DNA of 34,995 bases, taken from NCBI GenBank assembly GCA_027486095.1, contig JAIXPT010000199.1, positions 1-34,995 on the forward strand, given 5' to 3'. Position 1 is the first letter of the stretch. Each line of letters begins with the position of its first letter. This document shows, piece after piece, positions 30,932-34,032 of this stretch. The translations under genes and the position numbers were made by a program. The notes under the pieces were generated by a model, which was not told where the DNA came from, made no database searches, and worked only from the letters and a program-made list of their open reading frames with translations. This stretch comes from Planctomycetaceae bacterium. Its GTDB lineage: Bacteria; Planctomycetota; Planctomycetia; Pirellulales; UBA1268.

Positions 30932-31834
30932 ATGCAGCCGCAATCGAGCGTTCATGCCCCCGTGTTGCCGGCCGAGGTGATGTCGTTCCTCGCCGTGCGT
31001 CCCGGCATGCGCGTGGTGGACGGCACCCTCGGCGGCGGCGGTCATACGCGGCTGCTTGCCGAGGCGGTGGGCCCGGATGGACTCGTGATCGCGATCGACC
31101 GCGACCCGGCCGCGATCGACCGCGGCGCCCGCGAACTCGCCGGCCTGCCGGTGCGGTTCGCCCAGGCCAACTATTGCGACCTGCCCGAGGTGCTCGATGC
31201 CCTCTCGATCGACGCGGTAGACGCCGTGCTCCTCGACATCGGCCTCTCGAGCGATCAACTCGCCGACCACGACCGCGGCTTCTCGTTCGACGCCGACGGC
31301 CCGCTCGACCTGCGGTTCGACCCGACCGAGGGCGAGCCTGCCTGGCGAATCGTGAACCGCATGAAGCCGGAGAGCCTCGCCGACATCATCTACGAGTTCG
31401 GCGAGGAGCGACACAGCCGGCGGATCGCGCGGAAGATCGCGGCTGTGCGCGAGAAGCAGCCGATCCACTCGGCCCGCGACTTCGCCCGGCTCGTCGTCTC
31501 GGCGATCCCGCGGCAGCACCCGCCGTCGCGCATCCACCCGGCCACGCGAACGTTTCAGGCCCTGCGGATCGCCGTCAACCAGGAACTGAAATCGCTCCGC
31601 ATCGCCCTCGAACGCATCCCGGAGCGGCTCGTGCCGGGAGGCCGGCTCGCGGTGATCTCGTTCCATTCGCTCGAAGACCGGCTCGTGAAACAGGCCTTTC
31701 GCAACGTGCAAGTCTGGGACTGCCTCACGCGGTCCCCCGTCGAGGCCGGCCCCGAAGAGGTCGCCAGCAACCCCCGCAGCCGCTCGGCCAAACTCCGTGT
31801 GGCCCGCCAAATTCCCGCGATTGCGGCCTCCTGA
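30932..31834 (+). CDS. rsmH: 16S rRNA (cytosine(1402)-N(4))-methyltransferase RsmH
   Basis: RsmH (MraW) N4-methylates C1402 of 16S rRNA. The product has 300 residues, typical. The start region HAPVLPAEVMSFL is followed by the SAM site DGTLGGGGHTRLL, AIDRDPAAI, LLDIGLSSDQL and the substrate region IHPATRTFQALRIAVN. ISFHSLEDRLVK and RSRSAKLRVA close the protein. In many bacteria rsmH opens the dcw division cluster and is followed by ftsL; here the next gene, 77 bases downstream, is a LysM membrane protein. Confidence 0.96.
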   Translation: MQPQSSVHAPVLPAEVMSFLAVRPGMRVVDGTLGGGGHTRLLAEAVGPDGLVIAIDRDPAAIDRGARELAGLPVRFAQANYCDLPEVLDALSIDAVDAVLLDIGLSSDQLADHDRGFSFDADGPLDLRFDPTEGEPAWRIVNRMKPESLADIIYEFGEERHSRRIARKIAAVREKQPIHSARDFARLVVSAIPRQHPPSRIHPATRTFQALRIAVNQELKSLRIALERIPERLVPGGRLAVISFHSLEDRLVKQAFRNVQVWDCLTRSPVEAGPEEVASNPRSRSAKLRVARQIPAIAAS

Positions 31835-31911
31835 CCGGTCTGGCGACAAAGCGGTCGATTCACGAGAATCCCGCCCCCTCGGGGCCCGGCGGCAGCCGGC
31901 AGCGACGCGCG

Positions 31912-32454
31912 ATGGGTCGTGAAACCACATTTCTACTGGCAGTGCTCGGCATACTCGGCGGCGCGTTCATGGGCGTGTTGTCGATGAAGCTGCTCGTGCC
32001 CCGGCCCCCCGCCGGAGCCGGCCCCGACGTCGATCCGCAGGAGGTCGTCGCCGCCTCGCACGACCTCGTGGAACCGCCCGCCCTCGAACCCCGTGTGCCG
32101 ACCGCGTCCTCCCCGGCCGTGCGCCGCGACCCGTTCGTCACGCGCTCGGCCTTCACCGCTCCCGACGCTGAAATCCCGGACGAAATCGCCCCCCCGCCCG
32201 CAGCCCCGGCATTCGCTCAGCCCGCCGCCATCGAGCCGGCTCCCGCCGCGCCGATCGCGGGCAGCTACGTGACGGCCCCAGGCGACACATGGTGGTCGAT
32301 CGCAGAGCGGGCCTACGGCGATGGTCGGCTCTACCGGGCCCTCTTCTCCTGGAACCGCCGCCTCGACCCACGCGTCTCGACGACCCCGGGCACCCGCCTC
32401 GAAATCCCACCACAGCCGAAGCTCACCGCCGCCTGGCCGAAGCTCATACCGTGA
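31912..32454 (+). CDS. Single-pass membrane protein with C-terminal LysM domain
   Basis: The product has 180 residues from the ATG at 31912 (no strong ribosome binding site seen). A single N-terminal transmembrane helix covers about residues 6-25 (LLAVLGILGGAFMGVLSM). A long proline/alanine-rich linker of about 95 residues leads to a C-terminal LysM motif: YVTAPGDTWWSIAERAYGD through GTRLEIP. LysM binds N-acetylglucosamine polymers, so the protein probably reaches from the inner membrane to peptidoglycan. Its place directly after rsmH is where ftsL lies in other phyla. It shares no visible similarity with FtsL beyond the single-pass topology. Confidence 0.82.
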   Translation: MGRETTFLLAVLGILGGAFMGVLSMKLLVPRPPAGAGPDVDPQEVVAASHDLVEPPALEPRVPTASSPAVRRDPFVTRSAFTAPDAEIPDEIAPPPAAPAFAQPAAIEPAPAAPIAGSYVTAPGDTWWSIAERAYGDGRLYRALFSWNRRLDPRVSTTPGTRLEIPPQPKLTAAWPKLIP

Positions 32455-32534: not shown

Positions 32535-32691
32535 AGGGGTTACCCCTGCCGTTGAGCCGGCGTATGCAGACAAGCGCAGGCAGGATGCCCAAGCGGAGGC
32601 GCTCCCGCCGGCGCAGGCAAATCCGAGTGAGCCGTAGCCCGGAGGGCGAAGGCGAACGTCCGGCGAGACGGTACGGGGTAACCCCGAGCCG
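32535..32691 (-). repeat. 157-bp dispersed repeat, copy 2 (inverted)
   Basis: This is the reverse complement counterpart of 2691-2847, of identical length. Both ends carry the GGGGTTACCCC/GGGGTAACCCC core. It lies in the 369-base gap between the convergent LysM and DUF1571 genes, like copy 1 between ychF and the RND gene. The rest of this gap holds the 28-nt motif, a small inverted repeat (TCGACA/TGTCGA, 32763-32777) and no gene. Confidence 0.8.
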
Positions 32692-32823
32692 GCGGGCATA
32701 AGCTGAAAACAGGCCCGGAGGGCCGGGTAACCACCAGCCGACGGACGTCGGCCAAGGCAAGTTCGACAGGATGTCGAGACTTGCCGTGAACACAGACAGG
32801 CTTGAGCGCGTCCTACGATGACG

Positions 32824-33750
32824 TTACTTGGCGCCGAACTTGTAGGCCGTGTTCTTCGGGTCGAAGTCGTCGTCGGTGAAGCCGTTGTTGATCTTCACGT
32901 TCATGTAGGTGTACTCCTCCATGAGCACCGGCTGCCCGCCCTGCTCCTGCGGCCAGTCGTAGGCCTCGTAGCGGATCGGGATCGTCAGCTCGTCGTCGAT
33001 GAAGACGCGGGCGAGGTGGAAGCGGAAGTTGCGGCGCGGCACGGGGTGCGACACCTGGATACAGGTGCAGATGCGGCCATTGACCTTGGCGTTGGGGAAG
33101 AAATTCACGTCGCATTCACCGAATTGCCTGTCGTGGTCGGCGACCTCGATGAGCCGCTTCGTCAGGTTTTCGACACCGAGCTCGGTGATCGGATAGCGGT
33201 TGCCCGCCATCGCGAGCATGCTCTGCGGCTTGAGCGACACCATGCCCACCATGGCCCGCACGCCGCTGCCGGCGTGGGCGAGCATGTTGCCGTCGTTGCG
33301 GCCATCGACATAGATCACCTCCTGGCCCTTCACGCTGTCGGGCCCGAGGAACATCAGATAGACGCTGAAGGGCTGCTGGCGGATCTTGGCGAACATGTAT
33401 TCGTGTTCGCCAAGCTTGCCGTCGATCCGCTCCCGCTTCACCACCGTGCAGGAGTAGTCGGTGATGTTGGTGCGAATGCTGGCGAGCCCCTTGCGGGCGA
33501 TCTCGAGCGCCGGCTCGAGGGGGTGGGTGGCAGCGGCAGCGGCCACGGCATCGCCGGCTCCGGCATTGCCCTGCGGCAGGCCGCCCTGAGGGACGAGGCC
33601 GGTGAACTGGCCGCCTGCCTGGGCGGGCTGTTGGCCAGCGGGCGTGGGGGCCTCACCGCGCAGCGGCATCGAGCCGATGCCCATCACCACGGCCAGCGCC
33701 ACGGTGGCGCCGCGTGTGCCAATCCAAAGCTTCCATGCCCGTCGGGCCAT
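32824..33750 (-). CDS. DUF1571 domain-containing secreted protein
   Basis: The product has 308 residues. The ATG at 33750 follows GGAGGG 8 bases upstream; the ATG at 33765 overlaps that site and is rejected. A signal peptide (TVALAVVMGIGSMPLRG) precedes a Gln/Gly/Pro-rich linker to about residue 75. The DUF1571 body then contains ITDYSCTVVKRERIDGKL, YLMFLGPDSVKGQEVIYVDG, and VFIDDELTIPIRYEAYDWP near the end. DUF1571 has the fold of lipoprotein-carrier (LolA-like) sheets; its role in Planctomycetota is unknown. It is convergent with the LysM gene and divergent from the MBL-fold gene. Confidence 0.9.
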   Translation of the reverse strand: MARRAWKLWIGTRGATVALAVVMGIGSMPLRGEAPTPAGQQPAQAGGQFTGLVPQGGLPQGNAGAGDAVAAAAATHPLEPALEIARKGLASIRTNITDYSCTVVKRERIDGKLGEHEYMFAKIRQQPFSVYLMFLGPDSVKGQEVIYVDGRNDGNMLAHAGSGVRAMVGMVSLKPQSMLAMAGNRYPITELGVENLTKRLIEVADHDRQFGECDVNFFPNAKVNGRICTCIQVSHPVPRRNFRFHLARVFIDDELTIPIRYEAYDWPQEQGGQPVLMEEYTYMNVKINNGFTDDDFDPKNTAYKFGAK

Positions 33751-34032
33751 CGCACATCCCTCCATGGATTCCGTCACCCGTTCGTTCATCGCCCCCGCCC
33801 GCAGCGGGGCATGAGCAATCGCCGACTCCCCCGAACGGCCGGCAGATTCGTTGGGACCGGAGCCGGAAGGGTTCGAAGGAGGCGGGAGCATACCGGCGTG
33901 TCGATGGGCCGGCCATGGCAGTTCACCCGGTATTTTGCCCGTTTTTCTGCCGCTGGAGGCCGCGGCTTGCCACCCCACCTCGACGAGACCATGCTCGGGC
34001 TGCTCCTGCCCGCTTCCCCGCCCGCTCGCCCC
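33751..34032. other. Intergenic gap between the divergent DUF1571 and MBL-fold genes
   Basis: This 282-base gap must contain promoters for both genes. Open frames cross it, including in-frame upstream starts for the MBL gene at 33991 and 33895, but the residues they would add are arginine/proline-rich and unlike the family. I saw no convincing promoter, hairpin or repeat. Confidence 0.4.

What the first reader, a model, noticed from the sequence alone, without database searches (positions are those of the whole stretch)
31912..32454. Membrane-anchored LysM protein in the ftsL position after rsmH
In most bacteria rsmH is followed by ftsL, a small single-pass division protein. Planctomycetes lack FtsZ and have a scattered dcw cluster. 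Here the next gene is a single-pass protein with a long linker and a peptidoglycan-binding LysM domain. It could be a functional replacement or a division-site anchor in an FtsZ-less lineage.
Basis: partly seen in the sequence, partly recalled or inferred. Interest (0 to 1): 0.5.

Follow-up and report, generated by a model that had tools for sequence, protein, structure and literature searches.

The report
LysM membrane gene inside planctomycete division cluster
A gene for a membrane-anchored protein with a sugar-binding-type (LysM) domain sits right after rsmH in many planctomycetes; in several families it is an extra gene in front of an ftsL-like division gene rather than a substitute for it, and the window's own family has kept it although the usual wall-building enzymes were not found in its genomes.

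Summary
In detail: a 180-aa protein (31912-32454, +) with an N-terminal membrane helix, a Pro/Ala-rich linker and a C-terminal LysM domain starts 77 bp after rsmH. The pair is intact in 25 of 26 informative loci of the window's family (4 more cut by contig ends), in 48 of 80 rsmH regions of the order and 16 of 59 elsewhere in the phylum. In 14 loci of five other families the order is rsmH - LysM gene - small FtsL-like gene - FtsI, so LysM and FtsL-like genes coexist, and the LysM protein has no profile similarity to the latter. "Functional replacement of FtsL" is therefore not supported; it looks like an extra gene of the division/cell-wall cluster. Unexpectedly, no PBP transpeptidase was found in 40 genomes of the window's family, and no FtsW/RodA or full-score MraY in 20, yet the gene stays next to rsmH under purifying selection on the membrane and LysM parts. 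Best reading: a membrane-to-envelope tether that outlived the peptidoglycan polymerases. Ligand, membrane topology and a role in division are inferred, not shown; the statistical link to wall genes fails once kinship is controlled. The papers searched do not describe the gene.

The parts
30932..31834 (+). rsmH (mraW), 16S rRNA methyltransferase, first gene of the pair
   Evidence: TIGR00006 3.9e-83, PF01795 1.2e-88
31835..31911 (+). 77-bp gap between the two genes; no sigma-70-like promoter found by a crude scan
31912..32454 (+). single-pass LysM protein, 180 aa
31918..31995 (+). N-terminal helix (residues 3-28), membrane anchor; begins with the conserved RE.. motif
   Evidence: model helix H3-28; R3 E4 L8 L9 L12 L15 L27 invariant in the 42 rows of A2; motif shared with other families
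32002..32028 (+). conserved RPPxGxGxD stretch after the helix (residues 31-39), seen in this family
   Evidence: R31 P32 P33 G35 G37 D39 invariant in A2
32029..32256 (+). Pro/Ala-rich disordered linker (residues 40-115), fast evolving
   Evidence: pLDDT mostly below 70; P+A 47% of residues 40-116; high dN in all but the closest pair
32260..32409 (+). LysM domain (residues 117-166)
32413..32433 (+). extra C-terminal helix (residues 168-174)
   Evidence: conserved L171, A174, W175, L178

Best explanation
The gene is a member of the division/cell-wall (dcw) cluster found so far in part of the Planctomycetota (other phyla were not surveyed). Its likely ancestral place is between rsmH and ftsL (rsmH - lysM - ftsL - ftsI, seen in another order of the class, f21, and in families f53, f57, f65, f72). 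The product is a single-pass membrane protein. The membrane helix with its RE(T/A)K-type motif is one conserved working part, the LysM domain the other, and a long disordered linker carries LysM away from the membrane. Most likely it ties the inner membrane, or a partner held through the helix, to a glycan of the envelope during growth or budding. In the window's order ftsL and ftsI no longer follow rsmH, and in the window's family no PBP, FtsW/RodA or full-score MraY gene was detected; the tether stayed. Shown: anatomy, gene order and its conservation, coexistence with an FtsL-like gene, purifying selection, undetected PG polymerase genes. Inferred: ancestral state, periplasmic side, glycan ligand, role in division.
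For: Pair intact on one strand in 25 of 30 family loci (4 cut by contig ends, 1 convergent) and, in an overlapping named set, 51 of 57 (5 cut, 1 apart). In six loci (L186, L203, L207, L225, L227, L232) queA, and DUF1571 where found, lie inverted relative to the pair while the pair stays together. Order: 48 of 80 regions, 14 of 18 families; rest of phylum: 16 of 59 regions, 6 of 49 families, 15 of these 16 with FtsI downstream. FtsL-like ORF between LysM and FtsI in 14 of 15. One cluster (L155, f53) checked gene by gene with Pfam: LysM 1e-19, unnamed 105-aa ORF, transpeptidase 5e-65, two Mur ligases. Shared N-terminal motif (a regex written after seeing the data hits 44 of 64 LysM neighbours and 4 of 230 other membrane ORFs). 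Selection: e.g. G000-G003 membrane part dN 0.093/dS 0.86, LysM part 0.124/0.62. PG+ genomes of the order have the gene adjacent in 22 of 23 regions, PG- in 26 of 57.
Against: The PG contrast does not survive control for kinship: 3 supported independent pairs, p 1, LysM going the same way in 0.6 and the other way in 1.0 on average. Positive-inside counts do not settle topology (42 family rows: 6 richer on the N side, 31 equal, 5 on the C side), so LysM could be cytoplasmic as in Kbp (recalled). The gene is not next to rsmH in 32 of 80 order regions, among them 10 of 10 of family f7; of the 32, G060 is too short to tell, G008 has the gene convergent, and G098 and G104 have a LysM ORF 1.8-2.3 kb on. 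The post hoc motif misses 20 of 64, including 7 of 8 in f21. Several origins of the insertion are not excluded. No localisation or binding data.
Confidence: 0.45

Rival explanations
1. FtsL replacement: the LysM protein took over the FtsL role after rsmH in an FtsZ-less lineage.
For: Single-pass protein in the slot after rsmH; in the window's order no FtsI follows rsmH in the regions read (0 of 80, with 0.3 to 10 kb read downstream).
Against: LysM and an FtsL-like gene stand side by side in 14 clusters; no profile similarity to FtsL-slot sets; linker predicted disordered, not a helix; FtsI, the partner of FtsL, was not found in the family (PF00905 0 of 40).
Confidence: 0.05
2. PG-independent tether: the domain binds another envelope glycan or a protein; the ancestral PG link is gone. 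The LysM here is of the Kbp/phage-baseplate-like type, which need not bind PG (recalled).
For: Sequence and fold neighbours include Kbp and phage-baseplate LysM as well as chitin- and PG-related LysM (weak scores). No PBP, FtsW/RodA, class A transglycosylase or full-score MraY found in the family while the LysM part is under purifying selection. PG- members of the order more often keep one LysM (two LysM: 21 of 22 PG+, 9 of 26 PG-).
Against: No ligand known; the domain-count contrast rests on 2 supported independent pairs.
Confidence: 0.25
3. The family still makes a PG-like polymer by enzymes the profiles miss, and the protein binds it as a usual LysM protein.
For: PMC4432640 (sections 5 and 6 read) reports MurNAc, GlcNAc and DAP in Rhodopirellula baltica, a member of Pirellulales (placement recalled), an order that PMC12283558 (section 13 read) says lost most mur genes. 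A MurE-like ligase is kept in the two family genomes opened (L181, L182).
Against: 0 of 40 PBP, 0 of 20 FtsW/RodA and 0 of 20 full-score MraY in the family; YkuD only weak in 2 of 20.
Confidence: 0.15
4. Bystander: the gene is co-transcribed with rsmH and kept by descent; its work has nothing to do with division or the envelope.
For: rsmH itself is a ribosome gene; among the neighbours read in the window (queA, DUF1571, a cysteine-desulfurase-like ORF named by eye) there is no other dcw gene.
Against: The pair stays together when the flanks are rearranged; in 14 loci elsewhere the gene lies directly in front of an ftsL-like gene and ftsI.
Confidence: 0.1

Closest known systems
E. coli Kbp (YgaU), LysM part
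   Same: Only NCBIfam hit (PRK11198, 1.8e-5) and among the closest solved chains (7pvc E 0.026; Kbp fusions GINKO1 and HaloKbp1a lead the fold search).
   Different: Kbp is a soluble BON-LysM protein (recalled); here a membrane helix and linker, no BON match in Pfam, LysM part only, 25 bits against a cut-off of 134.
FtsL / DivIC-type division proteins
   Same: Small single-pass protein after rsmH.
   Different: LysM domain and disordered linker; coexists with an FtsL-like gene in other families; no profile match.
Membrane-anchored LysM proteins in general
   Same: Helix-linker-LysM anatomy.
   Different: Recurrent place in the dcw cluster and a shared N-terminal motif; kept where PG polymerases were not found.
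TonB/TolA-like periplasmic transducers
   Same: N-terminal helix, Pro-rich linker, C-terminal domain (resemblance only, recalled).
   Different: C-terminal domain is LysM; LysM was the only Pfam match at E up to 1; ExbB/TolQ-type partners were not looked for.

Membership tests
LysM domain family (PF01476) | Profile match over the curated cut-off | tested here: inconclusive
   19.1 bits by hmmscan (below 20.9), 21.7 bits in the genome search (over)
LysM domain family (PF01476) | beta-alpha-alpha-beta fold | tested here: met
   E117-120 H127-135 H138-151 E162-165, mostly pLDDT 96-98; leading PDB neighbours are LysM-bearing chains, but none has E below 0.001
LysM domain family (PF01476) | Binds GlcNAc-containing glycans | not testable with these tools
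   needs a binding assay
FtsL | Profile similarity to FtsL-slot proteins | tested here: not met
   hhalign 1.3% and 0.2%
FtsL | Takes the place of FtsL (the two do not occur together) | tested here: not met
   both present in 14 clusters of five families
FtsL | Position between rsmH and ftsI | tested here: inconclusive
   true in 15 loci outside the order, there followed by an FtsL-like ORF in 14; in the order no FtsI follows in 80 regions
FtsL | Complex with FtsB/FtsQ and FtsI | not testable with these tools
   needs interaction data; no PF00905 protein found in the family
Kbp (PRK11198) | Full-length match above the curated cut-off | tested here: not met
   25.2 bits against 134, LysM part only
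dcw cluster gene of Planctomycetota (proposed) | Recurrent place between rsmH and ftsI in several families | tested here: met
   16 of 59 regions outside the order, 15 with FtsI; one cluster confirmed with Pfam

The most novel reading that the evidence does not exclude
A cell-division-cluster tether that outlived its wall: in planctomycetes without detectable peptidoglycan polymerases a former dcw LysM protein still ties the membrane to whatever envelope glycan remains, and so serves budding or envelope cohesion without FtsI, FtsL or a classical wall (and, from the literature, without FtsZ). If so, its ligand would tell what the envelope polymer of these bacteria is.
Probability: 0.2. Interest if true: 0.8.

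Novelty: new variant of a known kind. Interest (0 to 1): 0.55.

Why it matters
How FtsZ-less planctomycetes divide, and whether those that lack most mur genes have peptidoglycan, are open or disputed (PMC10632474 section 11, PMC12283558 section 13, PMC4432640 sections 5 and 6). A dcw-cluster protein with a glycan-binding-type domain, present in lineages with and without the polymerase genes, is a direct handle on both: its partner may belong to the division machinery, its ligand to the remaining envelope polymer. None of the papers listed by the searches appeared to describe the gene, and 'LysM' does not occur in the main text of the eight planctomycete, PVC, dcw or PG papers searched for the word. 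Supplements were not available, and most subscription papers are not in the library.

Tried and rejected
Replacement of FtsL: rejected on coexistence and lack of profile similarity. Chance neighbours: rejected on the conservation counts. Link between PG genes and the LysM neighbour: raw Fisher p 5.4e-6 (21 of 22 against 19 of 48, family f1 and regions under 1.5 kb left out), but not testable once kinship is controlled, so not used as proof. Single origin of the insertion: the rsmH tree (98 of 138 usable sequences, quick method) puts the LysM families in three groups with support 95-96 (f21 plus the order; f53/f69/f72; f57/f65) whose deep joins are unsupported; it needs 14 changes of the label. 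One gain with losses and several gains both remain possible. Pfam names none of the eight f21 FtsL-slot proteins nor the f53 one; the LysM-free L062 one reaches only E 0.024 (FtsL_2) and 0.059 (FtsL), below the cut-offs. Their naming rests on place, helix, tail judged by eye and the hhalign match. Topology by charge: undecided. Promoters and terminators: crude scan, nothing firm. Fold search: no PDB match with E below 0.001.

Dropped before counts: 8 of 65 genome-contig loci (L240-L247: seven Acidimicrobiales, one Spirochaetia, all matched at the LysM part only) were left out of the 57; the named set overlaps the unnamed family loci. L003 repeats the window and is not counted among the 30 family loci. 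'Adjacent' means a same-strand stop-to-stop ORF starting less than 700 bp after the rsmH match, whole-ORF E under 1e-5 with a profile grown from these same loci. Two of these hits are weak (G073 3e-7; G122 2e-12 in a 1537-residue frame). Of 26 PG+ genomes 23 were examined (G044 had no rsmH hit; G067 and G084 were not fetched). L071 was a wrongly placed request without rsmH. One script stopped half-way; its LysM part was redone. The nine dN/dS pairs share genomes and are not independent, one linker dS was not computable, and parts were cut by fixed lengths. L174-L176, L179 and L180 were fetched and not used.

Full report
What is there. The reported ORF is real: 31912-32454 (+), 180 aa, ATG, 77 bp after rsmH. 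Residues 3-28 form a helix, 40-115 a disordered Pro/Ala-rich linker, 117-166 a LysM fold, followed by a short helix. The LysM score is borderline for Pfam; the NCBIfam hit is the Kbp/YgaU model, LysM part only. Upstream on the other strand lies queA (PF02547, 29844-30893); downstream on the other strand a DUF1571 gene (PF07608; its start is not fixed). I saw no other dcw gene among these neighbours; the rest of the window was not annotated. The window is a contig of a 3.77-Mb, 456-contig genome, 77% complete. Relatives in the named collection are titled Planctomycetia, Planctomycetota, Planctomycetaceae or Pirellulales bacterium, and some carry titles such as Kuenenia that look mistaken.

Conservation of the pair. 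The protein was found in 34 of 36 genomes of its own family (f1) among 59 genomes searched, the window's own included. Of 30 family loci, 25 carry rsmH upstream on the same strand (gap up to about 0.7 kb), 1 (G008, L019) has the two genes convergent, and 4 are cut by contig ends. In the overlapping named set 51 of 57 are adjacent, 5 are cut, and one (L229) is scored 2.6 kb apart, partly because only its C-terminal part matched. In six loci queA, and DUF1571 where found, lie inverted relative to the pair, and the pair is intact. I then took rsmH regions of 80 genomes of the order and 59 from the rest of the phylum (139 loci) and searched them with a LysM profile grown from the family and these loci. 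In the order 48 of 80 have a LysM ORF next to rsmH, in 14 of 18 families. Families f4, f5, f7 and f9 (16 regions, one too short to tell) have none; f15 has 3 of 12. Outside the order 16 of 59 regions have it, in 6 of 49 families: f21 (8 of 8), f53 (1), f57 (3 of 3), f65 (2 of 2), f69 (1), f72 (1).

Not a replacement of FtsL. In the 43 LysM-free regions outside the order FtsI follows in 41, after a gap, and Mur-ligase-like ORFs often come next (the ligase profile was made from one ORF of L062, later confirmed as a Mur ligase). In the 16 LysM regions 15 have FtsI downstream, and in 14 of these a small single-pass ORF lies between the LysM gene and FtsI (start sites not fixed, and in L066 the called extents overlap). 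Pfam names the FtsI of four loci (PF00905 with PF03717: L055, L069, L062, L155). The small proteins of f21 match no FtsL family in Pfam, but their profile matches that of nine FtsL-slot proteins from other families, five of them LysM-free (90.8%, E 1.2e-6). The LysM family matches neither set. So in these families the gene stands between rsmH and an ftsL-like gene. Family f53 (G175, L155) shows the fullest cluster, checked with Pfam: rsmH - LysM protein (305 aa, LysM 1e-19) - 105-aa single-pass ORF - PBP transpeptidase - two Mur ligases. In the order FtsI was seen next to rsmH in 0 of 80 regions. In one PG+ genome opened (G047) the only PBP found lies right behind MreB (PF06723 4.5e-118), so it is probably the elongation type.

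One protein family. The region at the membrane helix looks shared: RE(T/A)K(I/L) in f1, (K/R)E(T/A/V)K(I/V)GL in many families of the order, and similar in f21, f53, f57, f65 and f72. A regex made after seeing this hits 44 of 64 LysM neighbours and 4 of 230 other membrane ORFs in the same loci; it misses 7 of 8 in f21. Being post hoc it is a description, not a test. In some loci the strongest hydrophobic stretch picked may not be the right one (for example L050, L054, L057, L123).

The wall genes. PF00905 transpeptidase: 0 of 40 family genomes, 31 of them at least 90% complete and at most 5% contaminated; 25 of 118 in the order. FtsW/RodA: 26 of 118, the same 25 plus G113, none of the 20 family genomes in the sample. 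MraY above its cut-off: 25 of 118 (24 of the PBP genomes plus G113; none of the 20), while weaker relatives occur in 107 of 118. Class A transglycosylase: 0 of 118. YkuD: 52 of 118, with 2 weak hits among the 20. Mur ligase middle domains occur in 118 of 118; in the two family genomes opened the hit is a MurE-like protein below all curated cut-offs. MurA, MurB, MurC, MurD, MurF, MurG and MurJ were not searched one by one. This agrees with PMC12283558 (section 13 read), which reports loss of most mur genes in Pirellulales, Isosphaerales and Gemmatales. It sits badly with PMC4432640 (sections 5, 6 read), which reports MurNAc, GlcNAc and DAP in Rhodopirellula baltica. I therefore say 'PG polymerase genes not detected', not 'no peptidoglycan'.

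Still under selection. In nine pairs of family members (not independent) dN in the first 40 residues is 0.012-0.116 and in the last 66 residues 0.021-0.169, against dS of 0.15-0.86 and 0.22-1.15; the linker evolves fast (dN 0.37-0.84 in all but the closest pair, where it is 0.025). So the protein is kept in working order in a family where the polymerases were not found. In PG+ genomes of the order 22 of 23 regions have the gene adjacent and 21 of 22 proteins have two LysM domains (the other is cut by a contig end); in PG- genomes 26 of 57 and 9 of 26. These contrasts are suggestive only: controlled for kinship there are 3 and 2 supported independent pairs, and in the first the trend even vanishes.

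How it most likely works. A membrane helix with a conserved motif, a long flexible linker and a glycan-binding-type domain suggest a tether between the inner membrane (or a partner held by the helix) and an envelope glycan. The place in front of ftsL- and ftsI-type genes in other families suggests a job in division or wall growth. Both steps are inference. The side of the membrane is not settled by charge; a cytoplasmic LysM, as in Kbp (recalled), would change the picture.

What is known. No paper seen describes it (search listings; passages; sections read). PMC10632474 (section 11 read) reports that mraW1, mraW2, ftsQ and several other dcw genes can be deleted in Planctopirus limnophila, ftsK not. 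PMC8871954 (passages seen) assigned ftsL groups partly by place between mraW and ftsI; a gene such as this one could be caught by that rule, a caution for published ftsL counts in planctomycetes (inference).

Noticed in passing
window 32611-32694, with more up to 32765: High-copy dispersed element of about 84 bp just downstream of the LysM gene: 49 matches in the genome with 40 of 285 first-look candidates scored, the long ones 81-98% identical, several near contig ends. REP-like by its G+C-rich palindromes, but the whole does not fold clearly better than shuffles (z -1.0).
   Followed up: partly
L181 (1288-2838, -) and L182 (891-2390, +): MurE-like ligase kept in the two family genomes opened, though PBP, FtsW/RodA and full-score MraY were not found; below all curated cut-offs. 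Possibly a reused enzyme.
   Followed up: partly
118 genomes of the order: The order splits into about a fifth with PBP + FtsW/RodA + MraY and the rest without; class A transglycosylase in 0 of 118.
   Followed up: partly
L177 8723-11945 (-): In G047 the only PBP found lies right behind MreB (PF06723 4.5e-118; PF00905 1.2e-60), probably an elongation-type PBP, while no FtsI follows rsmH there.
   Followed up: partly
L022, L027, L033 (genus g8): LysM proteins of this genus may carry an N-terminal extension of roughly 110 residues or more before the helix (ORF starts uncertain).
   Followed up: no
L039 6026-6430 (-), L051 2454-2810 (+): In family f7, with no LysM gene after rsmH in 10 of 10 regions, two genomes carry a small single-pass ORF there without LysM; homology to the LysM family not shown.
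   Followed up: no
window 32824-33801 (-): DUF1571 gene (5.3e-78) downstream of the pair; matched in 39 of 57 family loci with 4 kb flanks.
   Followed up: partly
Genome contigs titles of L183, L188, L192, L199 and others: Family relatives deposited as 'Candidatus Kuenenia stuttgartiensis' or 'Planctomicrobium piriforme' look mislabelled (inference).
   Followed up: no
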